Shown: one piece after another, positions 15,936-57,255 of the stretch
Numbering within the stretch: the first letter of the stretch is position 1
How the letters are laid out: each line of letters opens with the position of its first letter
Assembly: GCA_950295325.1 (NCBI GenBank)
Contig: OX485804.1
Location: 52,142,001-52,206,000, forward strand
Length of the DNA: 64,000 nt
DNA from: Polytrichum commune
Lineage: Eukaryota > Streptophyta > Polytrichopsida > Polytrichales > Polytrichaceae
Direction of reading: 5' to 3'
Notes under the pieces: model-generated
Database searches by the model: none
What the model saw: only the letters and a program-made list of their open reading frames with translations
Told to the model about the DNA's origin: nothing
Position numbers and translations under genes: made by a program

Positions 15936-16017
15936 TTACACTTTATTTCTGATTTAACGGGGTACTAATTTTATGTGTCAATTCATAATTTGTTATGCAA
16001 CAACAAGTGTCCCATGT

Positions 16018-16636
16018 AGGATCTCACTGGAAGTTGTCAAAAGTTGTCCCCATTGTGGTTCGGGAGCTATTGAATCAGTGGAGCATAGGTTTTTCAGTTG
16101 TTCGTTAGCTCAACGATTGTGGCATTATGCAGCTAATATCATTTGGCAATTCTTTGCGAGGAGAATTGGTTTTCCACCTTGGCCCTCGGAAGTCTTTCTC
16201 AATGATGAAATGCCTCTTCGATCAATCACTCAACAACTTTGGTTCTTCTTGAGAAGTGGCTTCCTGTGGATCATTTGGCGTCAATGTAATGATTTGGTTT
16301 TCAATGCTAGTCAACGGCCGTTGGAAAAGACGCACCAAGTGGTGTGGGACTCCTTACTTGACTATGGGAGATTGGAGTGGCAACAAACTCTCCATGACTT
16401 GGAAAAAGCCCCGGATGTTGCCTGTGAGGATGTTCTTAAAGAATTTGACTCGGTGTGGTGTGTCAAAAGGTCTTATTGTTACTCGTAGTAATTCGTTAGT
16501 TACTTGGAAGGTTAGACACCAAATTTCTTGAGTCCCCTCGGTATTCCTTTGGTTCTCCCAAGGTGACATGTACTTTTCTTTCAAAGTTGAATGTGTTTTC
16601 AATTTGTTCCCAAAAAATAACAATAATAATAATAAA
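16018..16636 (+). mobile_element. 5'-truncated L1-like LINE tail with zf-RVT domain
   Basis: The insertion is bounded by a 10 bp direct repeat, TGTCCCATGT, at 16008-16017 and 16637-16646, and ends in AAC/AAT repeats. That is the signature of target-primed reverse transcription. Its open frame continues to 16488 and encodes the zinc-binding C-terminal region of plant LINE reverse transcriptases: CPHCGSGAIESVEHRFFSC, then the LW, W and IIW..RN-type hydrophobic pattern ending in IIWRQCNDLVF. The frame is still open over about 155 codons, so the insertion looks young. The reverse transcriptase domain itself is missing. Confidence 0.88.
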
Positions 16637-24195: not shown

Positions 24196-24707
24196 GTCGT
24201 GTTTTTGAAACCGTACGCCTCCGGATTCATGGTTCTAGTATTCATCCAAGAGCAAATCATTTAAGCTTTGAACGTTTTCTTCACATTTTAGAAATCGGTA
24301 TTTTATTGATAAATTTGAGACACGTCATGGAAGATTTAAACTTTATTGTAAAAAAAACCATACATGGTCATCAGGATCTGAAGCACACGGCGGAGCCAAA
24401 CAACCTCAAGAAGTGAAAGAGACTTAATGCATGATCAAATCAACCGCCATCATAGGAGTTCAAACTCCACGACAAATTACAACACATAGTTTAAGGAGAA
24501 CAATCACGATCTACAAACACTAGTGTGATTCTTATAATTATGATGATGCGCTACAAGCATGTGCGTGCTAGACAATTGATATGTGTCACTAAATAATTGC
24601 GTTGCATTACTAGATATTTGTAAACTATCACAATGACGCATGTTGATTGCCTAGGATTTATAGGCTAGTATTAATGACTGCAGACTATGTCAAACTTGAA
24701 ATATTAT

Positions 24708-24768: not shown

Positions 24769-24810
24769 GATAAGGGAAAAAGATGCATGGAGTGTATCCT
24801 AATAACTACC

Positions 24811-24956
24811 TCAAGCGATAATGAAGTGGGAAGGGCGAGATTGGTTCTTGGTATTGTTCTCAATCTTTGTTGATTTGGCAGTGTTTTGGGCCAAGTTATG
24901 TCCTTCGACCGTAGGTTTATCCGCTCCTGCCTTGCCTCTACTCCACTTGTCCAATT
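24811..24956 (-). CDS. Tentative extra 3' exon of CDC14
   Basis: Follows a good acceptor (CCCTTAG). Two overlapping frames are open. The phase-0 frame joins exon 12 if the donor CCG|GTAAAT at 25623/25622 is used, and runs on to a GAG|GTAGTT donor near 24810. The other frame ends in TGA at 24811-24813, is rich in Lys/Asn/Gln, and would need an alternative acceptor 12 bp further in (ACAAG|TGG). The AATAAA just downstream favours the second. Whether this exon is used at all is undecided. Confidence 0.4.
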
Positions 24957-25610
24957 CTAAGGGAAACAAGCAACAAGTCGTTTAGCCACAAAAATGAAAT
25001 GAATTGAAACTAAGTTTAAAGTTTGGGAAGCCAAAAGGTTTATGGGACTCATAAGTACATCGAGATGGCGTTAATAAGGTTAATTTCTTAGAGTAATGAA
25101 ATGTAGTGACCTCTGTGATATAGAAAAATAATGTCAATTTGATGGTCTTATTGAAGAAAGACTTGCCAAATATTTATTTCAATATATGAAAAATAACCTA
25201 TCTTAATGAAGTCATAGATAGAGGGGACATTCCAACATAAAGCATGTCTCATTTTCAACTAAATTGTAAGAGCAAAATTGACGAAATCGGCTATCTCTAG
25301 GACTTGGGATAATGACCATCTGCAACATTCAAAATAACTTTTCTAAATACGAAGAGTAGAAGACTAATAGTTGGGAGGAGTGGAACGTAATCATAGAGAT
25401 TATATTATCATTACTCACTAAGAAGATTGCTATTGAGATTGGTATGATGAACAACAGTAGCAAGCACCTTCAGTACAAGCGTACAAGTCATGGGCAATTG
25501 GTTGGCGTCACAATGGTAGATTAAGATGCTTCTCTCTCACCACCGCAAAATAATTGCCTAGGACTCATATGCTAGTCTAAGTGCTCAATTCTTAAAAACC
25601 TAATAGATAT

Positions 25611-25826
25611 TCATAGTTCATTTACCGGCTTCAAAATTGTGCCCCTTTGGAGAGAAGAATTTGTAACAAGCCCTTCATCATTTTTAGGCCAAGTGATGGC
25701 CCCATCCGTAGTCGATGTAAAATATGAAGGTGATGTCACAAGAGAGTTTCCGGGTTCGTAAAGGGAAGACAAATTGCCTTGCCCAAGTGTTGAACCATTT
25801 TGTTGTTGGCTTCGCATCACATTGCC
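25611..25826 (-). CDS. CDC14: CDC14 exon 12, tail
   Basis: Acceptor TTCTAG, phase 0 with exon 11. Encodes a low-complexity tail ([15 protein letters not shown], then Ser/Thr-rich) ending ILKPVNEL and TGA. A strong donor (CCG|GTAAAT) lies just before the stop, so some transcripts may splice onward. Confidence 0.75.
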   Translation of the reverse strand, partial: GNVMRSQQQNGSTLGQGNLSSLYEPGNSLVTSPSYFTSTTDGAITWPKNDEGLVTNSSLQRGTILKPVNEL

Positions 25827-28800
25827 CTAGAATTAAAAAATAGGCTCGTTAATAACACACGGAAGCCATAACAAGGGTACTTACATACATCACTTTTATT
25901 TTACTTAGGATGCATATATTATGTCTTGAGGTGTGACACTACAAGGATGTGGATTAATATAAAAAATGAGTGGGTCAATTCCTCAAGGTACAAACAAAGT
26001 GAACAACTACTAAGTTTCACTATGCAATGAAACTCATTTTGGTTAATGCTTAAGGACTAACATAACATTATCCATATCCATAATAATGTTCAATGGAACT
26101 GACAACATCTGAAGGAATATTTCCGGATATTTCTCACATTTATTTTGAATGTGGGAAATATTCGAGTCCAAAAAAACTGATATGGATTTTAATAATGTTA
26201 TGAATGATCTAAATAATATTATGAACGGCCAACCATTAAAGTGGATGCAATGACATTCCTGAAGCCCTAACTATCATACACCCTTAAAAATACGCATAAA
26301 ATTGTTCGTTGGATACACATTAAATAGTATGGCCAAAGTGCCGCCTATGACTTGAAGTTTGTACATTTTGGAGTGGTAATGCAGTTGAATTTGATGTACA
26401 CTAAGAAAGGTTACAATATGAATAAGGGGAGAATACATAGGATTATTATAATCTTAATAAACAATTAGGGGTTCAAGCATGGCCCAACAAATTGATGTTT
26501 GTATATTTGATGTGTGAGCCATGGGGAGAGCTCTTTTTGGAAAGAAAGAAGAAAAAATTGACTCTAATGTTGCCACCAACATGAATGGTGTTGCTTTATT
26601 TTTTAGTTGGTCTAAGTCTGGATGTAATCCCAAAACGGGCATTACGAGAATTACAGGGCCCCCTTTCAAAGGTCACAAACACCTTGAATGGGCGTGGAAA
26701 AGCCGGATGACACCTAAGGTAGAGGGGCACATTCCCGCTCGGGTCCTTAAACCGCTCACTAGACCTATCCAAACAAGAGGTACATTATAGCTTCGTACCT
26801 CAAATTTCTATGTAATCATGATGTACATTTTTGGGGTGAGTGGTTTTGGGTACCCCTATGAGTTCTCCTTCCAAAATTCATAACTAATTCAATATTAATC
26901 CAAAATTAATTATTCCAATTGGTCCAATTTCCAATGTACTTTGCACATCTTCCAAGATTGATTCCCCCTTAATAACTCCCCAATGAACATGCCAATCTAA
27001 AATTCGAGCGGGAATGTGCCCCTCTACCTTATCTCTCCCAAAGGCAAACCCTAAGGTTCCCACATGGTTGGTTGAAAAATATTTGGTTCACCCAGATATC
27101 GTCACTATGATTGGGTGGACCATATGTGGTAGGGTGCACTGGGAATCAAATGATAGGAAGGTCACCCATCCAAGTACTATTCCAACCTTAGGTGGCTTGA
27201 CCTCGTAGTTCCTTTGGGTTTAAGCCATCGATAGAGCTCTTTATACTTGATATTGAAGAGGCTAAAATGCTCTATACAAGGATTGACCTCCAGTGATGTA
27301 CATTGCTAATGACCAACCGTGTCAAAGACCAATGAAGAATTTCACCCACCAACCCTTAACTTCATGGAGCATATTGTGGTTTCATTAGATCATCTAAAAA
27401 GTAAGCTTTCTAGAGCAAATTTTTATATTGTATGGGTTACCTAAAAGAAGAGTTATTGCTCATTATTTTAAGTTCACATTAGTATGGTAGCAATATTTAG
27501 TTATTTTTATGACGTGCTTACAGATGATTTAGAGTAATCAAACTTCAAGAAATTGTGATAAGTATATGCAATAAAAGTATAGTTCAAACTTTCAAGATTA
27601 TATTAAGAATACACTTTGAGGTAAGAAAAAAGAGGTCATAAAATATTGACATTTTTCAATCAAAATAATATGAATTTACTATATATAACAACATATAATC
27701 AAAGGGAAAGATAGTTCATTCTTGACTTTAAACATCTCCGTGAACAACCATCTTTCCATATTGGAATGGGATTATCGCCATGGCCAATATGAAATTTCAT
27801 GAGGAACGCAATGATACCTATTGTGACCTTCCTAGCACCTTCCTTTTGGATGAATTTGCCTTCAAGAGTCAGTCATAAGCTCAGAACATGCCTCTCAGGC
27901 TGTTAAAGATTAAGCAAGAGATGCTCAACTCACCTTCCAGTATACCCTACCTTATATTATCAAATGAAGTCCGTTGAGTAAGATAAACCTAATGGGCTTG
28001 TATTCACGTCCATGTCAACACTCATATTTCTTTTTCTTTTTCTTTTTCTTTTAAGCAATGCTCCGGTAAGGGTAGGACCCGATTACTCACAAGTTTCCAC
28101 ATCCGGCTTTGCATGTCTCGTAGAAAATGTTGTTGAGGTCCGATCACACTACCGGGCCTCACAATTCGAAGGTAGCCCAATGCCTGCAAACCACATCCAT
28201 ATTCAACATGTTATCAATCAAACATAACTAGATTCGTGCTTCCTTTTCCCTTTTTCCCCATGACCAAAGGTGCATATTGACGTGAAATAAGGATTAGGCA
28301 TCAAGTGGTAAACCATGCCTATCAACATTCCACGATCTTATCTTGCATTAAGAATTACACATGAAACAAACCTTCAAGAGTGCATGCATCCATGCAATGC
28401 TTGAAAATGTTATTTGTGGATATTAAAATATATAAGCATAATATTAAGTAGAATATCAACGTTTACTTTATATATATTTAGTGAGAAACGAGATCGGAGT
28501 GTTTGACAATCGAGTAGGAATGGTTAATTTCTCATTAGCAACATGAATTTGAAGAACCGTGGGATCACAAGTGAAAAATTTGGGTTTAACTTTCCAAAAC
28601 TTCTTGGGCCCACAAAACAACAATATGTTGTTGAGTGTTGTTACGTTCTATTTGCATGTAACATAAGATTATTTAACTGAGTAACCATGGTCATTGTTGT
28701 GTGGGCCTTTGGTGCATTCAAAGTATAATGCTTTCAATGTTCTGAGTCCTACCTAGATTTAAGATGAATCTAGGTCTCATTTGGCATCAATATGAAGTAC

Positions 28801-31800
28801 TCCAAATAAAAAGAGGAAAAAACCTTGTAGCTAAGTAATATTATGAAGCATCATAATTATGTGTAAGGCTACATAAGTATAGCTGCGCTTTACCTCATTG
28901 CATGTGAATCGATGGTGCTTCATGATGTAACATCCAATCAACACACCGGTTCGACCCAATCCTGCCTATGCCACTCCCGCATTCACACAACTTAGGATTG
29001 GGATTTAAATAAAAGAATAATAGAAGTAGCAAGAATATTAAAAAAAAATGTACAAACACCATGGGAATCACGGCTCCTTACCACTAGGTCTCTTCCACCA
29101 GACAAGTTTGAACTCTATAAATATGGATTGGGAATCTATTGTGACAATAGATCATATAACCATGAAGTGGAAGAGAACTAATGGTAAGGAACTGTGATTC
29201 CTATAGTGAAAACAAGGTTATCATGAAGCTTTAATTTCATACTTTACAATGCACTGCGAGTGCTCCAACGCTTTGTTCCACTATTTCCAAAAATCTCTTA
29301 ACAATGCGCTCAGGGGGACAACTGCACGCACCAAAGACACCATCAATTTGTGAGTTGACGTATGGGTGTTATAAGATAGGGATACCCAAAATTGACACAT
29401 ATCCCAAAACCAATATTAGGTACCGACGTCGTACATTTGAAGCTTCCAAATGTATGATTGTGGTATATGGTGTTAGTTAAAAGTTTAATGTTGGTTTTGG
29501 TATGCAAATCGTACACACAAAATGACACTCTTGTAGGCAATTTGTTCACATCCCCATTTAGACAGGCACAACGGGTCTTGTTGTCCAACTTGGTCACGGT
29601 TTGCAATGATGGCAACAACAAGACATGTGGAGAGCAACTATGAGGGGACACCGGCAAACATGTTGGAGCGTCGCATTAAACCCCATACTAACACACCCAA
29701 ATTCAAACTGACGAACACATAATATTAGCATCCCATGTACATAAGTTCTCGAATTTTACACTTGGGTTCGCCAACCCCACAAAACAACCTAGTGTTGCTG
29801 AATACTGTTATGATAGGGTGGGATTCATTGTCGGTTCTTAGGGCAGTGGCGGAGGGTGGTAGTCACCTTGAGTCTATGCTGCAAATGATGGAGGGAGTTA
29901 TTGCATATATGGGAGGAAGTTACGAGGTTCTAATTCTTGGAAGAACGAATTTGTAGATCCATTTGGAGTGGGAGAGCATTACTCCCTACCCATAACATTC
30001 TCAAGCCATATTGTACACTTTCTCTTATTATACATCCACCCAAAATGTATAGCACCATAATGAAGTAGCAAGTTCCGTAGTTGGATCATCCTCGATTCAT
30101 GGAGATCCACTAGCCGGACACGAGCTAATTCAAATTAGGACCGAGTGATGACATTGTTAGGAATGCATGTCATTTGATGCGACCTTATAACCACACATTG
30201 TCCTCTTACAAAGAGAGGAGACACACATATCCACAAAATTGTAACCACGGGGGGATCACTCCATTGTCAAGTTGAACACCACGTGCGACCAAAAAAAATC
30301 TTCTTTTGGTAAGTTGCACCACCAAAATGGGTCAAAATTTTATCAATTTTTTTTCATGAGTAGATATACACAGTACCTATGACATAGTTAAAAGTGGTAA
30401 CTAAATTTGATGATTTGTTTTTTTCATAAAACATACCGTTTTAAACTAGAATGACATAGAATTGAACTAAAATTACTAAAAAAACAAAGATGACTAAAAT
30501 TTTCAAAAAAATATACAAAAGATACTATCAATGGTTATGTATATGTAGAAAAAATATCATAAATTTTAAAATTATATATGGCATGTAATATAGGGGTAGC
30601 AAACTTTGTCTGCACGTGGTGTCAACTTGACAATGAAGTGACCTCCCCGTGATTGTAACTTAATGCCAACACTTGAGACGGTTTGAAGTGTGTGAATGGT
30701 GGGATGGGAAGCGACTCCAATATTGTTATTGATGTTGGGGAAAATAAGCACCTGCCGTCGGGGAAATATAAGTCGTAGTGGGCAAGGCCGTTGTTGGTGA
30801 ATCGCCTCCTATCGTAAGCTCTCCCATTCAACCGTATCACCCCTTTAATCCCCGCCTGCCATGGCCCCCAACACATTGTACTTCGTGGTTTGGAAAAATT
30901 AGATAAACCCCACAACTACACTAAGCAATAGATTTAGATTTAGTGTGGGTTTAAGATTGGTGTGCCATGTTAATTCGAGTGGTTCATGTGGGAGAGGGGG
31001 AATTATTGCACACGAGCGTATTGTTTCATTCATCCAACATAAAAAGCTTTGAAACATTGTGTAGCTTGAATGTTATAAATTCTAGTCAATTTGACAGCGA
31101 AATTAGTTGTAAAGACTCCAAGTTATCTAGTATAGTCCAAGTCATACGATATTTATCGGCCACAAAGTTACAAGGGGTCAAGCTTTTCTGTTGGATGCAT
31201 GAGAGGCACGTTCCAATGTTGGAATGGTTTATAGGTGAATGCATGGTATCAATAATCAACATCAATGATAGTATCAATGGACCTACCCGTGGGTATCACA
31301 ATTGTAATACCAATCAAATATTGATGTTTGGTGGGTACGTCAAGGTGAGAGAAGCTTTGTATACCCGAGATATTATTTGGGTCATTACCATTCTAAACCA
31401 TATTGACACTAGGGTGATTTTACCCTAGTATGAAAGTTCTTGCATGGGATATAGACTTGAATGGTATTGAAAACCAAATGACTCTCGAATACTCATATCG
31501 TACTGCGATCAAACAACATGAAATCCTCATTATAGATACCCAAATGGCATAAAAAAGAAGACAATGCCAGTCCAACACTAGTACATTCGTATGCGAGAAT
31601 TCCTTCTCTCCATCTTCATGCCTTGTTATGTAGTACCAAGTGTCATGTGACACCCTCTCTAGGTGCCATCTAGTGAGTGCAGGATGATCAATATGAATCG
31701 ATGATGACTAGTATGAGCCATACTTGTTTGAAGTACGAATTTATATGAAGGGCTTATGTTGTTGAGTTATTGTAATCCCTAACTACATACTAGAAGTGGA

Positions 31801-34800
31801 TCGGTTGGTCTCTTGCGTTTTGGTTGGAGCTTCTTGGTGTCTATATACACTCACCCCCATACTCTATAGGATTGAGGGCCGATTCATTCCAACTTGCCTT
31901 TGAACCACCTTATTTAGAAATAGAAAATATCAAGCTAAAGAAATGATCATTGCATTGTTGCCTTCCCAATAGATGATTTTATGAAGATACAAAAAGCTCT
32001 GCCCACATCTTTGTGGTGTCTATGTAACGGCCACTTCACACATGAGACTGAGAGCCCGTGACCATTGCACTTCAAGCACTCTCATTGGTGGAAAAGGCGG
32101 AGCCGGTCCAAGTTCGCTTCACACTACGCTTGAGGGACCAACGGAGTATGTGAATGCAAGATGGATGTAAACTCTACCTACATGGCATTGAATGGATCAT
32201 GTTTCATGGTCACTTGAATTATTTTCAAAAACCACCTCTTGGAGGGAAGGCCTAACGTAAAACTGGGAGACCATGGCACTCCAAATGCTCACAACCGTTG
32301 ATTTATTATATTTTATCATGTGTGAGGACGCGCATGAATAAAAATTCATTGAAATACCATTTGGTTGAGGACCCGGTCACATGTGACGTCACACTACACT
32401 TGAGGGTCCGTGACCACACTACATGATTTTGGAGGTGTGTTGGGACGGCCTTTGGATACTTTCTTTTGGGCTCTCACAATCTCATGATCACAACTCTTGG
32501 CTCGTGTGTGAAGGGGCCCTAACCTCATCCTTTAAAGATGATGAGTTCTAGTACAAACAAGTCCCATGTAGTTTGAGGGCCATTTTCTTCCAGCCGAACT
32601 TCAATAAGATGCTATTTCGGAGTCAAACCATCGTGAAGCTCTAGCCGTGTGTTTGCATTGTAGTATACTCTTAATATCATGTCTTAGTTTCCGCCAATTC
32701 CAATTCATACCACTCGTTGAATACGCACAAATTTTACATCATTGGCTTGACTTGTGCTACTTCAAGCTATAGTTGCACTCACATCAATATACAGTCCACC
32801 CTCTATAAATGTTACACCTATAAGTGTTAACCCTCTCTAAATGTTAACTTTCTTCTACTCCCCACATATTGCACACTATAAATGTTAAACGTGTTAACTG
32901 TTAACAAAATGGTACTCCCTTCTTTGTAAATTTGACTCTATAAATGTTAACAAATGAAATACAACCATAATATGGATGATAAAAATATTCCATCTTATAG
33001 TGACTTGCAATCTAGTTTTGGTACCATTAGAAGGTACATGGAATCACGTTCATGTGATGTGTCCAAGTATGTGGGTTTGTTGGTGCAGATTGAGAAATAT
33101 TTGCAAGTTGTGCATGCAGATGAATCTCACCAAAGAACCATTGATTCATACTCCACTCGTGATTTGTAAACTTGATATTGAATAAAGTTTTGATTGGGTT
33201 TGCAATTTTATGAATGGTATTCTCTCACAAGGACTCTTCACAATTGCTTATATTTATAAATGTTAAGATTTGTATATTGCTCAAAAAAATAATTTTATAT
33301 TTGTTAACTGTTCACACCTCTATAAATGTTAACTTTGATCCACTCCCGAGGGTTAACATTTACAGAGGGTAGACTGTATGTATATCACTGGTTCAATTTG
33401 CATGACTTCAAGATAAAGCTGGCACTTTGACCCGATCGATCAATTTGATCCAACTTGTAGCTCGACGTGTACATTATTCAAGGGTCAAAATTGATGCCCA
33501 ACTACAAGTATATCAATCAATCATTAAATGAATAAATGCATACTGAACTGGCACTTTTGTGGAGGAACAAAATGCGGACACTTACTACAACTTTCAAGCT
33601 GGGAAGAAGCACAAACCCGATGAAAATATTCCACATAATCTTCGGGCACCAATGTTCGGTACCCATAAATCTGCAAGATGTTGTAGCATGAATATTGTTA
33701 AGGTACATATTTTGTTGAAGTTTGAAAGCCAATACCCCATTCATGAGAATTTAAGGTATAAGGATTAACTTTTCTTTGGTTACTTTTTTTAATCAAACAC
33801 CTATGTTTGATTGGTGTATGGTCAGGTGAGTTTCAAAGGACAAACACCATAGAGACGCATATTTAAAAGATATTGGATTGTGTTTTCATAGTTTGTTAGT
33901 TGCATACTCTATATTTAGCATAATTGGAAGGACCTATACATTCTGTTACAAATTCAACAAATATGCATTTTGGGTAACCATAAACGAGAGGAGGTCCAAT
34001 TTTCATTCTATAGTTTTGTTGGTGTTTCTTCACATCTTTGTCAATGCAACACAAATTTGAAGACGTAAATTTGATCAATAGAAATACTCGCACATCTTCC
34101 ATGCAAGATTGCTTATATACATATAAAAAGGGAAGGTGGAGGAAGAGGACCTCTAAGCATTTAGATGATGGTCCGCTAAAAGCCACAAGCTTATTTGGGA
34201 CAATCCAATTCAAATCTCCATTTTCAACCTACATGAAAATTGTTACAATAGTAGTTGTCAAATTGACATATTGCTCATTCAATCTTAGAGCCTCTTTACA
34301 ATAGAGAGGTTGAGAGGCTGAAAATTGAGAGCGGGAAGATAGAAGTCTTCTCATTGACTCGAGCTTCTTGCTCACATTTGCACACTTAAGTCCACTTAGA
34401 CCTTTCATGAGCTCTCAAGCTAAGAGTTTGACCCATTGTGTAAAACTTCTTCTCATAATCGACTTCATCTTGTTTCGAAGAACGGAGAATGGTTTATAAG
34501 GAAATAAAATTGACAAGGAACTTATTATGTATACAACAAGGGATTTCAATTTTTTTTAAATGTCAACATGTCGTATACTAACCCTTAATCCTACTTTGAA
34601 TAAAGATAGTGATGACCTTTTAAAAAAAAAAAAAAACTTCATGTTTTATCTTGATTTTTTTATGTATCTAAAGTTCAGATAGCCTTATTTTGATGATGCT
34701 CCTTGCTTATTTCAAATGAAGTTTTCCCCAAACCCTAGCCAATGAACTCTCAAGCATTGTTTGAGTTGTCATGAACCCTAAGTTGTGAATCCTATTCCCC

Positions 34801-37800
34801 AATTGATGACTAATTCCAACATCTCCACTTTACAATTGTTCAAACTACTTAGAGCTTGAAGATTGCTCAAGCTTTCCATAGTTTGGACTTTGGATGAAGC
34901 TTGTCATCTCCAAGTACCAAAGTCCACAAAATTGCAAGTTTGAGCTCTCAACTTGGGCTTGGGTGTAAAGGTGAGGGCCTTGTTGAACTCTACATTTGAG
35001 ATAATGCTTGGCAGTGCCAGGGCAAGGTGGTGTTTAGTTTGAATCATGTTAGGCTACCACTCGGAGAAGAGTTGTCCATTCCAACCATGCGTTGCAACTT
35101 GTCCATTGCAATTCATAGCAAGAAAATGCATAAATAAATCATTGTGGTGGCCAACTAGAGGTTTTTATTTGTAGTTTGGGGAGAATCGATAACCAACAAC
35201 CTCCAGTTGACAACCAAAATGATTAATATATATAATTTTTCATTAAGAGTTGTAATGGACAAGTTGCAATGGTTGGTTGGAATGGACAAGTTTTCTCCTA
35301 GTGTACGTAAATTGAACTGATTATGAGCAAAGAATCTAATGCTAAAATTTACTTGTTCAAAATATTCGTACTCCTCCAAGTTAAAGTTGTTGAAATCAAT
35401 CCACCCTATATTTTTGGCTTTTGCAAGAGCCTGCAATTGTCACCACCACCACCACCACATCTAAAATCATGAAGTGAATCTCTACATTTGCATGCATTTC
35501 AATTGTTCCAAGTTTGAGTACCATAACCATTGGTGCTTAAGATGGCGTTTCGATATTGGGCAATCATAGGATAATTTATCTTTAGTGACCCTTACCTTGT
35601 TCCATTCTCAATTTAGGTTGTTGAATGAATGAATGAACGGCCCTAGAGGGGAAAGTGCTCACATGATCATGTTTGTAACCTCTCTTTGGCCCTCCCCACA
35701 CGGGGGAGGGGGGGGGGGGTAAATTCTTGGGCGCATGATAACCCCCCCCCCCCCCCCCCCCCTACATGCTTTTGGAGGGAGGACCTCCTGATAGGATAAG
35801 GGACATGGTCCATGACCTGCAACCTCAAGTAGCCATTGTATCTTTTTTAAAACCAGACCAAAAAATGTTGCTTGCCCTACTCGACTTAGAAATGTTGCGC
35901 TTGCATTCTTGAAGACTACCTTGTTTACAAAACCCACATTGAGTGCACCTCACCTTCAAAGCCCAAAATCCAATATTTATATTTGTTCACTACCACTTAG
36001 GTTATAAATAATTGATTATGATTTCAATTCTGAAATGAAACCGTCAATAAAGCATGGAATTAATTTGGCAGTAGAAATATTAAAATTTTAAGTAATGTGA
36101 TTGGTCCTTCCATATTTTGGGTTGCCAAGTTAATTCTATGCTTTATTGACGGTTTCACTTCAGGAATGAAATCATAGTCAATCCCTTATGAACTAAGTGG
36201 AAGTGAACATATATAATTATTGGATGTTGGGCCTTGAAGGTGAGGTGCATTCAGTGTGGGTTGTGTGAACAAGGTGGTCTTCAAGAATACAAAGGCAACA
36301 TTTTATTGAAGTAAGGTGGGGTGAGCAATGTTTTTCAGTCAAATTCAAATTTTTTTGGGGTCTACTTGAGGTTTGTGGGTCGCAGGCTATGCATCTTAAA
36401 TCCTATTAGGAGACCCCTCCCCCCAAACATAACATTTTTGAGTTGCTATTAGCCAATCCATTCTAATAATACAAGTACACTGCTTTACCGAGTTTTTCAC
36501 CCTAAATATGCCAGTGCAATGCTCTACTGTGAGAATAAACAAAGTATAAATCCGAATAGAATTTGGCTTACTCCCAACCCACCTAGTGTACAAACTTAGC
36601 TGAATAATGTTACGAGCTCGCATGAGGAGGTTTGATGTCTGGTGTTATCTTGTCCAAATATATATTATTATTGTACAAAGTAGAAATGTCCAACTCCGTT
36701 AGTGATCTGATTTGACAACTATGTTATGTCCCAATGTGAAACAAAATACATATATCAAAGTGAAATTAATACATACATACTAGTGATATTAATCTAAGCA
36801 TCAGAAATATGCCTAACTAGTTGAAAAAGGCAAAAATGTCAACATTTAAGACTATCCATTGGGGGGAAGAGGGGGAGGGAGGTAGAGAAAGAGGGGGGGG
36901 GGGGGTTCTATATAACATCTATAGATCATAAAAAGATCTATACCATATGTGCTAAAGTTCATGATCTCATGAATTTTTTTTTCCTTAAATGATTTGAAAA
37001 CATCAAGGATCTCAAAAAGGTAGTCAAAGGGTGGGTTGACATTAGTGTTTAGGTCCAAAGAACTTGGGAGTTCCACCCCGTTTCAACACCCCTCACTGGA
37101 CCTAACTTTTGGTCTCAAGATTGAACCCAAGCTTGAAATTAGTTTTCTCAAATTGAGTGAAGTATTTCCTTGAGTTGGGACTGACAGGATTTGACGAGAA
37201 AGTGGTGCCACATCAGTGCCACGTCACTTTCCTCATAACTTTGGACTCGGACCCTAGATGTAAACTCCTTGGGTCCTGAATATTCCTCTCAACCAATGGG
37301 ATTGCTCAGTTTTGGAGTTCCTTTTGGGTCTTGGACCCTAATGAAAACCCACCCAAATTGTCCATTATAGGCGCTTCTACTTCTACCTTAGAGAATGCCC
37401 GATTTCAACTCTAGAGACTTATAGGAATCACATGAAGTCCTTTAGCAGGTGTACCTTGATGCAATCAAATACCGGGAGCTGGTACATTGAATTCCCACAC
37501 GTGGGATCCCGAAACGGCATATAAGGCTCAAATGCTGATAAGGGTCCATAAGCATCTTCGGCCCCCAAGCCACCAATGAGGACTAGGTATGCCCCGAGCT
37601 GAAAATGCCATCGCGAGTCACATGGTAAGTTAATGAATTTTGCAAATACAAATTTGGTTGTAACATGTTCAATAAGAAAATGGCTCTTCTCATCATTATG
37701 AAAGATAGGCAATAATAATTATACCCAAAACCACCAACATAACCTAAAACCATCAACATTATGTACCACCACTACTAGCATATGAGTCCTCTGCAGCCCT

Positions 37801-40624
37801 TCCATGTCGATCAAAGAACAATGCAAGTTTATCACTATATTAGATTTGTAAAATTTTCCAATCACGTAGGCCAAGTTTCCAGTGGCGTAGGTTAATTGCC
37901 TAGGACTCATATGCTTGTAGTGCACTGTCATGCATTTGGAGCTAGCCGTCCTGAACTTCGCATGTGTAAATATGATACTTATTGTTGGTTTTAGTTGTCA
38001 TGTTGAGTTTGGGTGTGTGCCTTATACATGATTTTTTCATGAAATTATTCAGCAACGCAACCGTGTTTCGTGGGTGCATGTGCAGACGGAGAATAACGTT
38101 CTGAAAGCAATAATTCTCATCCAAATTCAAACATTTCAGTTTGAATCTTGGTGCAAGTTGTCATAGCAAGGTCCGATTTGACGACTTCTCCAAGTGTTTT
38201 GGATTGAAAGAGAACGGACTACGTAGTGGAATAATAGTATGCTTTGAAACAAGGTTCCTTGGAGTATGTTATATAAGGTGTGCACCTAGCATACATTGTC
38301 GACCTAATGTAGATTTTAGAGTGTCTAGTTACATATCCAAGGCTGAAATGTACGGATGCAAAAGATAAATACTACAGACCATCTACGACTTTCATTTCAA
38401 GAACTCTTACGATATTCCATGACTCCATATCATCACAAACTTAACTACGACAAACTTCTCAGTTGGATATGTTACTTTGGTCATGTAATGTCTCGGTTTT
38501 GTTAACAAACCTCTACATATGTTGAAATGCAAAAAATGCCCCATAATAGGTGTCCTCTCACCTTAGACTTGATGAGCAACGTGTTTAAAATTTTGCTTAG
38601 TGGAGTCACATTACAAAATCATAAAAGCACGAGTGTTTAATAGTCTTGCATACCAGAACGGCTGCATTCGATTGCTTGGTAGGATTGGTGCTGCAGAAGA
38701 AAAGCACACATTGGTTGTGCTCCTCTTCTTCCTACCTCCTCTCGAAGGAGGCGGCCACTCCATCACATATGGATGACACACACATGTGATTAATACAATA
38801 ACATATGTGATTATGATATGTATTATGTGTTATTAAGCCGCGCGCAATTACACGTGCTTTTAGTATAGACTCCCCCTCTCAACATGTAAGTGACACTTCT
38901 ATTCGTATTACGTGCTTGAATGGGGTAAACCCATTTGATCAGTTTTGTTTTAGGGTGAATGTGCTTTCACATAACATTACTCAGCCTCACACCAAGCTTC
39001 GGTGGGGTCATGACTAAGTTATAAATCCTTTTCAAATACATGTTGCTTTGCCACTACTCACATGCACACTCTCAGTACGACTCCTATTCACAATCACAAG
39101 AAAATGTATTTGTCTCAGTCTGAACAATGCAATATGAACAATGGTTTTTTTTTTTCGCCGGTGAAAGTTGCTTGTGTGAACAGTGCTTTTTTTGAACATT
39201 GTTGGCTTGAACAATGTAATATGTGGATAGTGCCAGTTGGCAAGAGGAATATGTGAATGATGTTGGCTTGGATTGGCAAGCAAACGCACAGTGCTTGTTG
39301 AGTGATGTTATGTATACACTTCAACGGTTTATTGTTGATGTTTGTTTTCGTTTATTTCTCTAAGCAAGTACACATGGAAACCACAAATTCATGAATTTTC
39401 ATATACATAAAGTACACGTGCCTAAACCAAACACAACAATAATTTGGGTACCTATATTTGAGTGGTATGTGGGTAGGTGTGGAACTAAGAACTGGCACCA
39501 AAGAGACATGTGTTCAAAAGAGATCGGACTACATGCTCAAAACATATCAACCATTCTAAGCTCAATAGTGAACATGATTGGGGAGACCTATATGACCACT
39601 AAAATGAGCACAAGAGTCTTATTTTTGATAGTGAATAAGAATCATATTCATACCAGCTCCAAGATTTACGAAGCAAATTGGTCACATGCACGATATGGAT
39701 TTGCTAATCATCTTGCACTAATTGTGTGTTCCATAGCCTACGATAAGTGGGTGCAGAGAGAAAAGTGTCCATCTTATCCACGTCTACCTTGCATCTAATT
39801 TGGACGTATGGCTGACTCACATGACTGAAGCCAATTGTCTGAATGGAAGTGTATATAGGTGGTGTATTTACCCCTTTAAACAAAACACATTTTTCTTGTG
39901 GACTTGGCACATCTAAATGCACTTCCTGTGAATACTTACTGTTTGTGGTCCAATGCTTGAGCTTTTCTTACGAATTTGGGTAGCCAGAAGCTGACAGAAG
40001 CGCTAACCTTAAGGAGCCCATGAAGTTTCCAACAAAAGCGGTACGTGCATGCAAGATTCAGAGGTCCAAAGTCGGCAAAAAATGGCTCGTATACCTGCAC
40101 ACGATACAAATGCTGAGTTTTTTTTTAATTTTTTTTTTTTAAGAGTTTGGGCTACTGGAGGCTGATATATAAGGTCAAAGGATCATCACTATGGCTGAGA
40201 GTGGTATTCAGTAGGACCCAGAACGACAAATTTCTCAAGTTCATTGAAAAATGCTCGCAAAATTTAACCTAGGTGTATTACGGCCATCTGTTTGCAAGTA
40301 GTTGACTCATTTAGTTGACTCCAGAGATTGGTGGAGAAATGAGCAGCAGATGCATCAAAAGTTAGGATGGTCTTCCATACAGAAAGCGAGTATACATGAA
40401 TTCAGGGATTGAATTTTATTTGGGAGTTTGGGAGGCAGAGCATTAGCTAGAATTCTCACTAGCTCATCATCAATACTGAAGGTTTTTGCAGGCTTCGGGA
40501 GTCCCTGAAGTGTAGCAGAGTCTTCGGGCCGTGAGAGAGGTGCAAAATAGAGCTTCTCTTTTATGATCTCACTCAATTGTGCTGTCTCTTTCTTCTCCTC
40601 TTCCTCACATGAACCAATTCCCAT
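25611..40624 (-). CDS. CDC14: CDC14-family dual-specificity protein phosphatase
   Basis: Twelve exons on the minus strand: 40624-40460, 40094-40008, 37955-37866, 37598-37455, 35430-35353, 34228-34151, 33670-33617, 30855-30752, 29321-29243, 28965-28894, 28183-28091 and 25826-25611. Every junction has GT/AG and keeps frame, giving 419 codons and a stop. A stop lies a few codons upstream of the ATG in the same frame. Family landmarks in order: LYFAPLSRP and [20 protein letters not shown] (about 25-70), [10 protein letters not shown] (4th exon), [26 protein letters not shown], general-acid loop YFPDGS (Asp265), P-loop HCKAGLGRTG (Cys292, Arg298), then [15 protein letters not shown]. These are diagnostic of CDC14, which removes phosphate from CDK-type Ser-Pro sites and acts in mitotic exit, cytokinesis and at centrosomes or basal bodies. 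The tail after residue 348 is Ser/Thr/Gln-rich and shorter than in animals; a longer 3' end is possible. No coding lesion was seen. Confidence 0.93.
26055..26232. mobile_element. Hairpin-forming repeat in CDC14 intron 11
   Basis: Arms CATAACATTATCCATATCC and the complement of GGATTTTAATAATGTTATG face each other, with a second inner hairpin around GGATATTTCTCACATT. The left 100 bp matches the foreign segment of the chimeric MITE at 17823-18280. Confidence 0.5.
26716..27030. mobile_element. Inverted-repeat element with perfect 26 bp arms
   Basis: Identical inverted arms at 26716-26741 and 27005-27030, reading AAGGTAGAGGGGCACATTCC onward. A TA could be the flanking duplication, which would suggest a Tc1/mariner-like MITE, but the boundary is ambiguous. 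In CDC14 intron 11, next to the 5S-derived fragment. Confidence 0.6.
27137..27225 (-). pseudogene. 5S rRNA-derived fragment
   Basis: On the minus strand the sequence follows 5S rRNA from GGAACTACGAGGTCAAGC (compare GAACTCCGAAGTTAAGC) through AATAGTACTTGGATGGGTGACC (split here as AATAGTACTTGG then ATGGGTGACC). This covers the A-box and C-box regions of the internal RNA polymerase III promoter. Mismatches are scattered and the first ~40 bases are not conserved, so it is not a working 5S gene. It may be a pseudogene or the head of a 5S-type SINE. Confidence 0.7.
28091..28183 (-). CDS. CDC14: CDC14 exon 11
   Basis: 93 bp, acceptor TTTGCAG, donor CTT|GTGAGT. Encodes [21 protein letters not shown], the conserved C-terminal edge of the catalytic domain. 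Confidence 0.96.
28894..28965 (-). CDS. CDC14: CDC14 exon 10, rest of the P-loop
   Basis: 72 bp, acceptor GCATAG, donor GAG|GTAAAG. Encodes [20 protein letters not shown], completing the HCxAGxGRTG signature across the junction. Confidence 0.96.
29057..29208. mobile_element. CACTA-type MITE in CDC14 intron 9
   Basis: Ends CACCATGGGAATCACGG and the complement of CACTATAGGAATCACAG; flanks AAA at 29054-29056 and 29209-29211. Same family as 3788-3923. It ends only 35 bp from exon 9's donor. Confidence 0.75.
29243..29321 (-). CDS. CDC14: CDC14 exon 9, ends in the catalytic HCK
   Basis: 79 bp, acceptor GTGCAG, donor AAA|GTATGA. Encodes [15 protein letters not shown] and LAVHCK, with the nucleophilic cysteine (residue 292) next to last. 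Confidence 0.95.
30246..30651. mobile_element. hAT-type MITE in CDC14 intron 8
   Basis: Termini CACGGGGGGATCACTCC and the complement of CACGGGGAGGTCACTTC, with arms of about 40 bp. The flanking 8 bp duplication ATTGTAAC is perfect at 30238-30245 and 30652-30659, which identifies hAT. It sits 100 bp from exon 8. Confidence 0.9.
30752..30855 (-). CDS. CDC14: CDC14 exon 8
   Basis: 104 bp, acceptor GGCAG, donor CAG|GTGCTT. Encodes [27 protein letters not shown] and two bases of the following Ser codon; contains the general-acid aspartate. Confidence 0.95.
32028..32519. mobile_element. Harbinger-like MITE, family A, in CDC14 intron 7
   Basis: Left end CGGCCACTTCACACATGAG, right end the complement of GGGCCCCTTCACACACGAG, flanked by TAA at 32025-32027 and 32520-32522. 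492 bp, aligned over its length with the inverse of 15435-15935. Confidence 0.85.
32792..33376 (+). mobile_element. pogo-like element with transposase remnant
   Basis: Termini CAGTCCACCCTCTATAAATG and the complement of CAGTCTACCCTCTGTAAATG, flanked by TA on each side (32790-32791, 33377-33378). CAGT ends with a TA duplication are typical of the pogo branch of Tc1/mariner. A 71-codon frame at 32954-33169 ([14 protein letters not shown].. [11 protein letters not shown]) resembles the C-terminal tail of pogo/Tigger transposases in pattern; the DDE core is absent. It lies in CDC14 intron 7. Confidence 0.75.
33617..33670 (-). CDS. CDC14: CDC14 micro-exon 7
   Basis: 54 bp, 18 codons, acceptor TTGCAG, donor CGG|GTTTGT. 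Encodes [18 protein letters not shown], equivalent to the P-E-x-Y-x-x-Y-F stretch before the catalytic strand. It is too short to stand out as an open frame and was found by needing the segment between exons 6 and 8. Confidence 0.92.
33790..33875. mobile_element. Fragment of the long-arm repeat family
   Basis: AATCAAACACCTATGTTTG and GGACAAACACCATAGAGAC match, inverted, the fragment at 62385-62520 in the LRRC46-like gene. In CDC14 intron 6. Confidence 0.5.
34151..34228 (-). CDS. CDC14: CDC14 exon 6
   Basis: 26 codons, acceptor TGTAG. Encodes [20 protein letters not shown], where the second, catalytic domain begins. Donor GAG|GTCCTC is non-optimal but keeps phase 0 with exon 7. Confidence 0.92.
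35353..35430 (-). CDS. CDC14: CDC14 exon 5
   Basis: 26 codons, acceptor TTGCAG, donor CAA|GTAAAT. Encodes [17 protein letters not shown], matching the F-D-F-x-x-F-(D/N)-x-x-E-Y-E block of the family. Confidence 0.95.
35774..36418. mobile_element. Fold-back Mutator-like element in CDC14 intron 4
   Basis: Two arms of about 300 bp (35774-36070 and 36130-36418) are imperfect inverted copies, sharing words such as CTTGCATTCTTGAAGAC with the element at 52474-54046. It has almost no spacer, unlike that element. Its left end abuts long G and C homopolymer runs (35702-35762). A target duplication was not resolved. Confidence 0.7.
37029..37354. mobile_element. Harbinger-like MITE, family B copy 2
   Basis: Ends GGGTGGGTTGACATTAG and the complement of GGGTGGGTTTTCATTAG; flanks AAA at 37026-37028 and 37355-37357. 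Interior aligns with 10821-11113. It lies in CDC14 intron 4, 100 bp from exon 4. Confidence 0.7.
37455..37598 (-). CDS. CDC14: CDC14 exon 4
   Basis: 48 codons, acceptor TTTTCAG, donor AAG|GTACAC. Encodes [20 protein letters not shown] and the LPVFDCIK helix, a clear match to CDC14. Confidence 0.95.
37866..37955 (-). CDS. CDC14: CDC14 exon 3
   Basis: 30 codons between acceptor GCGAAG and donor TAC|GTGATT. Contains the TVHY motif matching the IVHY of CDC14, then a segment ([16 protein letters not shown]) that diverges from the KRANAAFLI expected and is about three residues longer. A competing acceptor 6 bp in would shift the frame into a stop. Part of the exon shares a 23 bp word with DNA near 25551. 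Confidence 0.78.
39420..39780. mobile_element. One arm of the long-arm repeat family in CDC14 intron 2
   Basis: Inverted relative to 63140-63440 and to the left arm of 22085-22620, sharing CTATATTTGAGTGGT, CTCAATAGTGAACATG and the TATTCATACCAGCTCC region. A 135-codon plus-strand frame overlapping it is a by-product. Confidence 0.6.
40008..40094 (-). CDS. CDC14: CDC14 exon 2
   Basis: 29 codons, phase 0 at both ends, acceptor TGCAG, donor AAG|GTTAGC. Encodes the family-defining block [15 protein letters not shown]. Confidence 0.95.
40460..40624 (-). CDS. CDC14: CDC14 exon 1
   Basis: 55 codons from ATG to DDEL, with donor CTA|GTGAGA. It encodes an acidic N-terminus (EEEEKKE) and the conserved [10 protein letters not shown] start of the N-terminal phosphatase-like domain. 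Confidence 0.9.
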
Positions 40625-40671
40625 TGCTCTTGGGCTCGAATTTTTTTACTTTGCGTTCATGAACTCATACA

Positions 40672-41385
40672 ACATCACGTCGTCGTCGTCGATCAACCGC
40701 GTCGGTTATACATGTACACTCGTTTGCGGTGCCTTAATTAACCTGAATTCAATCTTCTGCAGAGATTCATTGGAATTACTTGATGAAACCACTATAAAAT
40801 ATTCGACTCTTCCTTACGTGGTGAATGTTGTAGCGTATGTGAGCCCGGCAGCAGCAACGTTGTTGACCATCAGGGGCCACTGATTTGTACACAATCAAAA
40901 CCTGATTTTTTCGGCTGATAAATGCAACCTCACGTTGTCGAATCACGTAGGGAATACATCCAGACTCGTTTGCGGTGCCTTTGAATCTGATACTCTGCAG
41001 AGATCCATTGTAATTGCTGAGATCAATATAAAATACTCAACTTCTTCTCATGTGATGAATGCAAAATTTGCCGCTGATAAACACAAGTTCACGTTGTCGA
41101 ATCACGTAGGGAATACATCCAGACTCGTTTGCGGTGCCTTTGAATCTGATACTCTGCAGAGTTTCATTGTAATTGCTTGATGAGATCGATATAAAATACC
41201 CAACCTCTTCTCATGTGATGAATGTAAATTTGCCGCTGATAAACACAACTTCACATTGTCGAATCACGTAGGGAGTACATCCAGACTCGTTTGCAGTGCC
41301 TTTGAATCTGATACTCTGCAGAGATCCATTGTAATTGCTTGATGAGATCAATATAAAATACTCAACAACTTCTCATGAGATGAAT
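40672..41385. repeat. Tandem ~160 bp repeats upstream of CDC14
   Basis: Three close units start near 40911, 41069 and 41231. Each contains TCGAATCACGTAGGG, ATACATCCAGACTCG, TTTGCGGTGCC, TCTGATACTCTGCAGAG and ATATAAAATACTC. A more diverged unit lies at 40672-40830. The block starts within 50 bp of the CDC14 ATG on the upstream side. The phrase GTTGTTGACCATCAGGGG recurs at both ends (40858 and 41386), so a longer segment was duplicated too. Part is open on the plus strand, which accounts for the repeated frame LVCGAFESDTLQ. Confidence 0.88.
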
Positions 41386-41635
41386 GTTGTTGGCCATCAG
41401 GGGCACTAATTTGTGCACAATTGAAACCCGGAATTTGCGATTACGGTATCTTCTGGATCCCTGGAGGCATCTTCCCAAATCGTTCGTTGAAATATTTCCA
41501 GACACGCTTACCCTACACAAAGTAGAGGAACTTGAAAACGGGACGAAACGCTTCGGACGGAATTTCTGGACATTAATAATCCTGTGCGAAATAGGCAGGC
41601 GTGAACAATTCTTTTGCAACCCTAGCTCTTCGATC

Positions 41636-42939: not shown

Positions 42940-45858
42940 CCAGTTCACCTGAAACAACCCACTTACACCAAGTCAGCAAAGTACAAGGAAGAACTTGAAG
43001 CAAACAAAGGTTTAGAGAAGAGAGCTTACCATGCCACCTCAGATGCCAGATGGGCAGAAAAGCCAGCTCGGCAGCAAGATCAAGAACCCACAAGCTTAGG
43101 GTTGAAAGCTCGGAGACTGTCCAAAGACACTTCTCTTTCAGCTGAAGCTCGAACGGTTGCAGCAGTTACCTCGCCGCCCTTAGCAACTGTCTCCCAGCTA
43201 ACCGAATTTCCAATAACAATAGCTCTTGTCACTGAAGGAGTATCCACAGGGAAGCTGGTTTCAAAACGAGATGAGGCTTTGGGTCTGATTGAATCAAGAG
43301 CACTCAAGGCTCTTACCTCCATCAAGTTCAGCACAGAGGATAAGGAATTGTACCCACCATTGTGCAAACAACACATTTGGCAGCAGGTGCTCATTCGAAC
43401 GGTTATCCAAGCGGCCAAGCTACTGAAAGATTTTCCGAGCTTCAAGCTGATGCACGGATTGGTACCATATACACCCATGGAGTCGTTTGCTTTCCACATG
43501 GATGCGGCTTACAAAAGCACTCAGTTCAGCAAGGAGGAGCTGACATTTTTACGTAAGCTAAGACTGGGGGAGTTCTTGTGCGATGTACCATGGGGAGTTG
43601 TGCATCCAGTCAGAGCAGCGGAGGCTATCAACACACTCCAAGAGGACACTCTGAAGGTCAGCCTTAAAGGTGAGACTTTACCTCTGTTTTCTGAAGACTG
43701 GAGGGAATTGTTTCGGAACATTTTCCATTTATCACCCAAAGGAGAGAGTAAGGGGGAGACCTGGCAGTTACATGAACTCTTCCCCTCTCTTAAGGTCATA
43801 CAGAAGGGACAGGTCACGGTAAAGGTAAGTGACTGTCAAATGGCGGGTTCCAAAAGGCCATTGCGGCTTCTCAGCTCGTTTTTCTGCCTCAACACAACAG
43901 GCCAGTATAGCATCGCCATACATTTTGCTAAACTCATATTGGCAGCTGTCAATGGGCAAGCGGTGGACTGGCCCCTAGAATTTTTGGACGAGCTTAAGGC
44001 TGAGGTGATCACCCTGCATCGACAACAACAAGAAGACAAGGCCAAGGTAATCAAAACGGCCATTGGGCCGCACCTGACCTTGCTGATTGATGACGCAAAC
44101 TTTTTGGGCAGTCAAGAGAGGAAGGCAGCAGGATTCGGCACCCCAGCAGGGTTGTCCATGGCAGAACGAGCACCCCCACCCCGGAAACGCAAGATGGAAG
44201 AGGAATCCGGCTCAGGGAAGTTAGACATTGTCACCCGAGTCACCCCACACCCCAAACAAACCATTAGTAGCGGAACCCAGAGTGTTCAGGGCACGACCTC
44301 GGGAGAAAAACCTCAGAAGTGCCGAATAATTCACTCAGCAGAGAAGTGGCAGGTACCAGATAGCACATCCAACATGGTCAACCAGATTTGTTTCACCCAT
44401 CGCAGATTGGAGAAATTGCTCACTACCTTTACAAGTCAAGCAGGGCCGGAATTCGTCAAGAGAATGGATGACGAATTTCAGCAACTACAGGTTGAGGCTA
44501 ACCAGCATTACAACCAGAATTTGAGGTTGAAAGAGCCTCTAACTACAAATGAGCACGCAGTGGAGAAAGGCTTACTGCACACGGAAATTAGCAAACTCAA
44601 AAAGGAGTTAGCCACCCTTAATGAGGGATATGCAGATCAGGTCGAGATGGTTTTTGAGTTACAGGACCAATTGTCTGCATCAGAAGGCATGGTGGCTTCT
44701 CTCACAGAAGAGAAGCGGTCCCAACAAGAACAATATGACCAGATGACAAGAGAGGTGGCCAAACATAGTCACGAATTTGAAACCATAAAGAAGGAATTAC
44801 TGGATACCCAGCAAAGACTGACGGCTTTGCAAGCCGAGCACGACCAGCAAGCCATCAATTTGGCGACACTTGAAGAAGAACTTAATCAAACCCTGAAAGC
44901 TTCCTACAACACCAGCCCGGTTACACCCAGGTCGGAGGAGGCAACACCGCAGGCCAGCGGGAGCATCACACAAACATGCACATCGGCACTTTATTCTCTG
45001 ATTGAAGAAGTGATGAACCCGGCAGAGTCCCATAAATGCTCAGTCACCGAGTTGCAACAGGAGCTTCGTTACATTACCAGGGAAAGGGACGAGTTGTAGG
45101 TGATGGTGGAGAGGATCTTTGAGAGTCTTCCAAATCCAAATGCGGACACCCTCCCCAATGATCTCAGCCCCACAGATATTCCCAGGACATGCATTTCACC
45201 AAGAGCAATCATCTACCAGCAGCTGATCACAAACATTCCTCCCTTCAAAACCATAATGCAGGCTTACCATGCTCTGAAGGGACTTAACCTATTGATCAGT
45301 CAGGTACCTCTCCTTAAAACCGGTGTCACTCTCTCCAAGCCACAATTTGAGCAGATCTGGTCCAATGCGGACGCCACAACAAGAGACACCCTTGCATTCA
45401 TGTGGGTCAAGGGTGAGATAAAGTTACCAACATGGATTATGGAGGTGGTAACAGGCTCTCCGCCGTTTTACATCGGCCGATTCGTGCTGCGCACCCTTAG
45501 TTTCATTAGCCACCACCATTCAGAGTACTACAATCACACTCCTGTCACCAGATTGCCAACCCTGAAACCCTACCCTAGCAACTTGTATCACCAGATTAAG
45601 GAGGCAATCAAAAATCAGCCCATCACCTTCAACCAGGCTCTCAAGACACTCACAACAGAGGATACCACTATTTGTTATGAGGCAGTGCAACAATTCACCT
45701 GGCTGCGGGAAAGGCACCCAAATCGATTACCAGGCCCCTACACATTATCCCAGATCAAAGAGTATGTGCTGCGAGTAATCAGGGAGAAAGAGACCACCAT
45801 TTCCACCAAGAGGTTCGGCACACCAAATCCTCGAACCATATTGCAGCTTGATCAGTGA
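42940..45858 (+). CDS. gag-like ORF of an LTR-type element, one in-frame UAG
   Basis: One frame is open from a TAA at 42937 to TGA at 45856, apart from a single TAG at 45097-45099; 719 codons lie before it and 252 after. No ATG occurs in the first 170 codons, so the start must be spliced in, non-AUG or lost. Translation gives an N-terminal globular region (FSEDWRELFRNIFHLSP, SFFCLNTTGQYSIAIHF, AVDWPLEFLDELKAE, IGPHLTLLIDDANF), a basic NLS-like PPPRKRKME, and a long coiled coil (about residues 430-610 counted from 43102). After the TAG comes a second globular block (YQQLITNIPPFKTIM, PLLKTGVTLSKPQFEQIW, QFTWLRERHP). No protease, RT, RNase H or integrase is present. The layout recalls gag-only LARD-like plant retroelements; assignment rests mainly on the polypurine tract and LTR-like sequence downstream. 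Codon-like structure continues smoothly across the TAG. Confidence 0.6.
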
Positions 45859-57145: not shown

Positions 57146-57255
57146 ATGGAGGAGATGGCATTGGACTGGGACGAGGCTCTGGCAAATGCAGCTGCCATTG
57201 TGGCACAACGCAACCTCCCTTCTGTCTTCCTGGACGACGCCACCGCAGATGCCAT
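57146..57255 (+). CDS. LRRC46: LRRC46-like exon 1
   Basis: 36 codons plus two bases; donor CCAT|GTAATC. Contains MALDWDEALANAAAIVAQRN. Reading on without splicing meets a stop at once, which supports the donor. Confidence 0.75.

What the first reader, a model, noticed from the sequence alone, without database searches (positions are those of the whole stretch)
25611..40624. Intact CDC14 phosphatase in a land plant
Twelve exons join in frame with all catalytic residues kept (Asp265, Cys292, Arg298). CDC14 is, as far as I know, absent from flowering plants but present in algae and some spore-bearing plants. A complete, long-intron copy is useful for dating its loss and for asking what the plant enzyme does.
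Basis: partly seen in the sequence, partly recalled or inferred. Interest (0 to 1): 0.72.

Follow-up and report, generated by a model that had tools for sequence, protein, structure and literature searches.

The report
Intact CDC14 phosphatase gene, probably plant
The window holds a complete-looking, 12-exon gene for the cell-cycle phosphatase CDC14, which flowering plants have lost but a moss, a clubmoss relative and green algae are already known to keep, so it is a sound but largely expected find.

Summary
On the minus strand, twelve exons (40624 to 25611) with GT-AG borders join into 415 open codons. The product has a full DSPn domain (3.1e-44) and a DSPc domain. It matches human CDC14A at 6.9e-105 (165 of 332 residues identical), against 1e-13 for the best other phosphatase. 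Open: the 3' end, and the organism. CDC14 in moss and Selaginella, its absence from 106 of 106 angiosperms, and co-inheritance with flagella are in print (PMC7374715, PMC3038932). This is a new member of a known family. One oddity: the residue capping the +1-proline pocket (Tyr132 in yeast) is Cys144. The likely role, inferred, is a pSer-Pro phosphatase serving basal bodies of swimming sperm. On recheck I found a second gene, a five-exon leucine-rich-repeat protein at 57146-62133, head to head with CDC14; it recalls the sperm-flagellum protein LRRC46, which I could not test.

The parts
40460..40624 (-). CDC14 exon 1 (start codon; MGIGSC...SIDDEL)
   Evidence: residues 16-55 aligned to human CDC14A
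40008..40094 (-). CDC14 exon 2 ([14 protein letters not shown]...; DSPn domain)
38654..38731 (-). CDC14 exon 3 ([26 protein letters not shown])
   Evidence: ungapped join to three CDC14 proteins; the pyrimidine tract of this acceptor is weak (9 of 18)
37455..37598 (-). CDC14 exon 4 (contains FRDPTCGN with Cys144 at the place of yeast Tyr132)
35353..35430 (-). CDC14 exon 5 (contains Glu180 and Glu183)
34151..34228 (-). CDC14 exon 6 ([13 protein letters not shown]; weak donor GTCCTC)
33617..33670 (-). CDC14 exon 7
30752..30855 (-). CDC14 exon 8 (RLNGRAY..., general acid Asp261)
29243..29321 (-). CDC14 exon 9 (ends AVHCK; nucleophile Cys288)
28894..28965 (-). CDC14 exon 10 (AGLGRTG; Arg294 of the P-loop)
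28091..28183 (-). CDC14 exon 11 ([13 protein letters not shown])
25611..25826 (-).
   Evidence: 5' end aligned to human; 3' end uncertain, a donor-like GTAAAT follows base 25626
24810..24956 (-). possible further exon of the C-terminal tail (49 open codons after a strong acceptor); unproven
   Evidence: 6 of 54 strong acceptors on this strand of the whole window, this one not left out, are followed by such an open stretch

Best explanation
This is an intact, probably expressed orthologue of CDC14, a two-domain dual-specificity phosphatase. Mechanism inferred from the family: the N-terminal DSPn and catalytic DSPc domains form a groove for pSer-Pro-x-Lys/Arg sites left by cyclin-dependent kinases; Cys288 attacks the phosphate, Asp261 acts as general acid and base, and Arg294 holds the phosphate. 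In the host it most likely serves the flagellated stage (basal bodies of swimming sperm) rather than being essential for mitotic exit; that is inferred from the published co-inheritance of CDC14 with flagella. Shown here: gene structure, domains, residues. Inferred: expression, activity, substrates, cell role, and that the host is a seed-free plant or a gymnosperm with swimming sperm.
For: Open 12-exon frame with GT-AG borders at 11 of 11 introns. DSPn over 1-140 of 140 positions at 3.1e-44 and DSPc at 4e-15, both above Pfam cut-offs. PDB sequence search: CDC14A 6.9e-105, CDC14B 1e-100, yeast Cdc14 8.5e-67, next family 1e-13. Asp261, Cys288, Arg294 at the places of human CDC14B 287/314/320 and yeast 253/283/289. 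Glu180 and Glu183 invariant in four sequences. Distribution with flagella: table of 22 species in PMC3038932 (section 11 read). A neighbouring leucine-rich-repeat gene recalls the flagellar protein LRRC46; this is memory, not a test.
Against: No transcript and no second plant sequence were available. The pocket cap residue (yeast Tyr132; Phe in human CDC14A, Tyr in CDC14B) is Cys144 here. No clear stimulatory tail motif of the vertebrate or fungal kind was seen by eye in the called tail. PMC3038932 itself lists two exceptions to the flagellum link (S. cerevisiae, C. merolae). The organism is unknown.
Confidence: 0.93

Rival explanations
1. The locus is a recently silenced pseudogene whose reading frame is still open.
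For: No transcript evidence; 3' end unresolved; the intron 6 donor (GTCCTC) and the exon 3 acceptor are weak.
Against: No frameshift or early stop in 1248 nt, all splice borders GT-AG, catalytic and groove residues kept.
Confidence: 0.06
2. The gene is a cell-division or cytokinesis phosphatase in this organism, as in fungi, with no special link to flagella.
For: PMC3038932 lists S. cerevisiae and C. merolae as having CDC14 without flagella; the yeast enzyme acts at mitotic exit (known biology, also in the abstract passage's listing).
Against: Loss from angiosperms without loss of mitosis (0 of 106 in PMC7374715), and joint loss with flagella in Ostreococcus and Hyaloperonospora.
Confidence: 0.3
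3. The window is not from a land plant but from a streptophyte or other alga, or another eukaryote.
For: No taxonomic marker was found; no genome is held; zf-RVT and RNase H hits are below cut-off.
Against: Introns of 277-2761 nt, a 15-kb gene and only two recognised genes in 64 kb of 37-45% GC DNA fit a large plant genome; weak evidence.
Confidence: 0.2
4. It belongs to another phosphatase family (DUSP23, PRL, PTEN, bacterial-type PTP).
For: Part of the catalytic domain matches these families (1e-13 and weaker).
Against: Full-length DSPn domain, and a best match about 90 orders of magnitude better to CDC14.
Confidence: 0.005

Closest known systems
Human CDC14A / CDC14B (PDB 9rib, 1ohc)
   Same: Two tandem DSP domains, P-loop HCKAGLGR, general acid Asp; 165 of 332 and 155 of 315 aligned residues identical
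   Different: Cys144 replaces Phe/Tyr at the pocket cap; the QGDKLRALK stimulatory helix of the vertebrate tail was not seen by eye in the called tail
Saccharomyces cerevisiae Cdc14 (PDB 6g84, 5xw4)
   Same: Same domains and catalytic residues; 115 of 296 aligned residues identical
   Different: Cys144 at Tyr132; no fungal Q-P-R-K tail motif seen by eye
CDC14 of Physcomitrella patens and Selaginella moellendorffii
   Same: CDC14 in spore-bearing land plants, reported in PMC3038932 and PMC7374715 (passages)
   Different: Could not be compared: I found no copy of their sequences in the collections that I could search
L001, eukaryote-like contig inside a Verrucomicrobiaceae MAG
   Same: Carries part of a CDC14 N-terminal domain, 54 of 182 aligned positions identical
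   Different: Keeps Tyr at the cap (FRDASYG); fragment only; probably a mis-binned protist or algal contig

Membership tests
CDC14 phosphatases | N-terminal DSPn domain joined to a catalytic DSPc domain | tested here: met
   Pfam DSPn 3.1e-44 over 1-140/140, DSPc 4e-15
CDC14 phosphatases | HCX5R P-loop with nucleophile Cys and Arg | tested here: met
   H287-C288-K-A-G-L-G-R294
CDC14 phosphatases | General-acid Asp upstream of the P-loop | tested here: met
   Asp261 aligns with human Asp287 and yeast Asp253
CDC14 phosphatases | Closest relatives by sequence are CDC14 and not other DSPs | tested here: met
   6.9e-105 against 1e-13; no tree with plant or algal CDC14 could be built
CDC14 phosphatases | Acidic groove residues for the +3 Lys (which residues these are is recalled) | tested here: met
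   Glu180 and Glu183 align with human CDC14B Glu206 and Glu209; invariant
CDC14 phosphatases | Activity on pSer-Pro-x-Lys/Arg | not testable with these tools
   needs an enzyme assay
CDC14 with a SLiCE tail motif (fungal or vertebrate subset) | Stimulatory pseudosubstrate motif in the tail | tested here: inconclusive
   looked for by eye only, in the called tail and the possible extra exon; tail end unresolved; motifs from PMC11407943 passages
Land-plant genome | Plant-specific genes or elements in the window | tested here: inconclusive
   only sub-threshold zf-RVT and RNase H hits; no own genome

The most novel reading that the evidence does not exclude
This copy represents a plant type of CDC14 whose proline pocket lacks the aromatic cap (Cys144) and whose tail lacks the known stimulatory motif, so that its specificity and regulation differ from the fungal and animal enzymes and are tuned to making sperm basal bodies from scratch; its head-to-head neighbour is a second flagellar gene of LRRC46 type.
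Probability: 0.12. Interest if true: 0.5.

Novelty: new member of a known kind. Interest (0 to 1): 0.3.

Why it matters
CDC14 is a textbook cell-cycle phosphatase that flowering plants dispense with. A well-defined gene model gives a target for asking whether the enzyme is tied to swimming sperm. If the species is a fern or a gymnosperm with swimming sperm, it would narrow the date of the loss, which the two surveys that I saw place only between lycophytes and angiosperms. The gene by itself changes no accepted view.

Tried and rejected
Exon 3 alternatives: a start at 38690 (strong acceptor) would need a further mini-exon; 35 candidates of 26-110 nt between exons 2 and 3 were listed. One of them, 39205-39126, holds KKKTIVHIA, like human KKIVHY, but is much too long to align there; a shorter version from a nearer acceptor would be out of phase (read by eye). 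The start at 38731 gives a gapless alignment and was kept.

Further tail exon at 24956-24810: a strong acceptor, 49 open codons, and an ITWPK motif shared with exon 12. The motif match is reached by 63 of 2000 shuffles; such open stretches follow 6 of 54 strong acceptors on that strand; the best DNA match between the two exon regions is a 24-nt repeat outside both exons. Left open. Another frame of the same stretch also ends in a natural-looking stop.

Relatives: two scans of viral contigs gave none (0 of 4 and 0 of 112 candidate stretches); one of genome contigs gave L001 (1 of 90). NCBIfam, a prokaryote library: none. Rfam at gathering scores: 0; tRNA: 0.

Other genes: Pfam scans covered 117 of the 124 stop-to-stop ORFs of 75 aa or more; of the 7 left out, 5 hold CDC14 exons and 2 lie opposite the 719-codon frame. 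Of 244 ORFs of 48-74 aa outside 25500-40650, 228 were scanned. Other weak hits, all under cut-off and taken as chance: LD_SV2 at 53151-53381 and Siva at 53328-53546, DUF4277 and DUF6693 (not traced).

Papers: ten searches used. No fern or gymnosperm CDC14 paper showed in the listings (capped: 20 of 4,517, 15 of 8,248, 15 of 122, 12 of 425); held 0 papers. Only an open-licence library was searched, so this is not proof that none exists. Kerk 2008 is not held and was seen only as a reference.

Full report
What is there. The gene lies on the minus strand. Six-frame reading of the region and joining of the exons gave twelve exons: 40624-40460, 40094-40008, 38731-38654, 37598-37455, 35430-35353, 34228-34151, 33670-33617, 30855-30752, 29321-29243, 28965-28894, 28183-28091 and 25826-25611. 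All 11 introns are GT-AG; 10 of 11 are phase 0; intron lengths run from 277 to 2761 nt. The joined frame is 1248 nt, 415 codons and a stop.

Is it CDC14? Pfam finds DSPn over its whole length (3.1e-44, residues 19-163) and DSPc (4e-15), both above curated cut-offs. Against PDB chains the best are human CDC14A (6.9e-105), CDC14B (1e-100) and yeast Cdc14 (8.5e-67); the next family, a plain dual-specificity phosphatase, is at 1e-13. Identities are 165 of 332, 155 of 315 and 115 of 296 aligned residues. Asp261, Cys288 and Arg294 sit on the human CDC14B residues 287, 314 and 320. The human C314 and yeast C283 numbering was recalled and used as the anchor; the yeast offset came out as zero, and yeast residue 132 as Tyr, as PMC7374715 says.

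How sure is the model? Exons 1 to 11 are each anchored, in whole or part, by alignment to known CDC14. Exon 3 was the hard one: its acceptor has a weak pyrimidine tract (9 of 18), but the joined protein aligns without a gap there to all three references. The 3' end is not settled. Exon 12 begins GNVMRS where human CDC14A has GDIFRS, which supports it, but the called stop comes shortly after a donor-like GTAAAT, and a stretch at 24956-24810 could be a further exon. The test shows that such stretches are not rare, so I make no claim.

What differs. PMC7374715 (section 6 read) says that yeast Tyr132 caps the pocket for the +1 proline and is the same in its fungal enzymes with one exception, which has Arg. 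Here the residue is Cys144; human CDC14A has Phe, CDC14B Tyr, and the fragment L001 Tyr. This may loosen the pocket or may be neutral. PMC11407943 (passages) describes a tail motif that speeds catalysis, of one kind in fungi and another in vertebrates; PMC3038932 (section 11) noted the QGDKL form in animals and oomycetes only. I saw neither form in the called tail by eye, and did not test it by structure.

Surroundings. A second gene lies on the plus strand: five exons, 57146-57255, 59615-59729, 60116-60275, 61157-61388 and 61896-62133, join in phase into 284 codons and a stop. One intron begins with GC (GCAAGT), the others with GT. The product has leucine-rich repeats above Pfam's cut-offs (LRR_4 8.7e-12, LRR_8 1.6e-9). 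Its start is 16.5 kb from that of CDC14, and the two point away from each other. From memory it resembles LRRC46, which mouse sperm need to build the flagellum (PMC9369233, abstract and passages). LRRC46 itself did not show among the 60 of 88 PDB matches listed for an earlier join of this protein; the best were other LRR proteins (LRRD1, 1.1e-18), so the name is a lead only. Between the two genes, frames of 719 and 252 codons at 42940-45858, split by one stop, have no Pfam match under 0.01. Retroelement traces are weak: zf-RVT at 15958-16485 (1.9e-4) and RNase H at 6292-6777 (2.4e-4), both under cut-off.

What is known. PMC3038932 lists CDC14 in Physcomitrella, Selaginella and Chlamydomonas and not in Arabidopsis or Ostreococcus, and argues for co-inheritance with flagella, with two exceptions. 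PMC7374715 (passages) found none in 106 angiosperms, one each in Physcomitrella and Selaginella, and one each in 6 of 11 green algae. The main point of the finding is thus in print. What could be new is the lineage, which I could not establish.

Mechanism. The chemistry follows from the kept residues and from established work on the family. The cell role is an inference: flagellated sperm are the feature that CDC14-bearing plants share and angiosperms lack (recalled, in line with PMC3038932). I put about 0.6 on a role in the flagellated stage and 0.3 on a general cell-division role; the LRRC46 lead would raise the first if borne out, and I have not moved the odds for it. The stated confidence of 0.93 is for the identity as an intact CDC14 gene.

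Verdict. A real and well-read gene, filed as a new member of a known family; modest interest, raised slightly (0.28 to 0.30) by the second gene found on recheck.

Noticed in passing
57146-62133 (+): A second gene: five exons, 284 codons, leucine-rich-repeat protein (LRR_4 8.7e-12), head to head with CDC14 and 16.5 kb away. From memory it resembles LRRC46, a sperm-flagellum protein; not tested. One of its introns begins GC, not GT.
   Followed up: partly
24646-24669, 25553-25576, 37895-37918 (+): A 24-nt sequence (ATTGCCTAGGACTCATATGCTAGT, up to 3 mismatches) occurs three times, once in intron 3 and twice just beyond the called end of CDC14; none expected by chance. The stretches before two copies look tRNA-like to the eye, perhaps an old tRNA-derived SINE.
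   Followed up: partly
40914-41387: 162-nt tandem repeat, 2.9 copies at 91%, about 290 nt upstream of the CDC14 start codon; could bear on its promoter.
   Followed up: no
42940-45858 (+): Open frames of 719 and 252 codons in the same frame, parted by a single stop, with a coiled-coil-like stretch and no Pfam match under 0.01; perhaps a retroelement gag-like gene.
   Followed up: partly
2375-3021: 274-nt tandem repeat, 2.4 copies at 91%.
   Followed up: no
L001 1-5612: Contig JAIYDP010000431.1, filed under a Verrucomicrobiaceae MAG, encodes part of a CDC14 N-terminal domain in a broken, intron-like layout; it looks like a mis-binned eukaryote.
   Followed up: partly
15958-16485 (+) and 6292-6777 (-): Weak zf-RVT and RNase H matches, perhaps remains of retroelements.
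   Followed up: no
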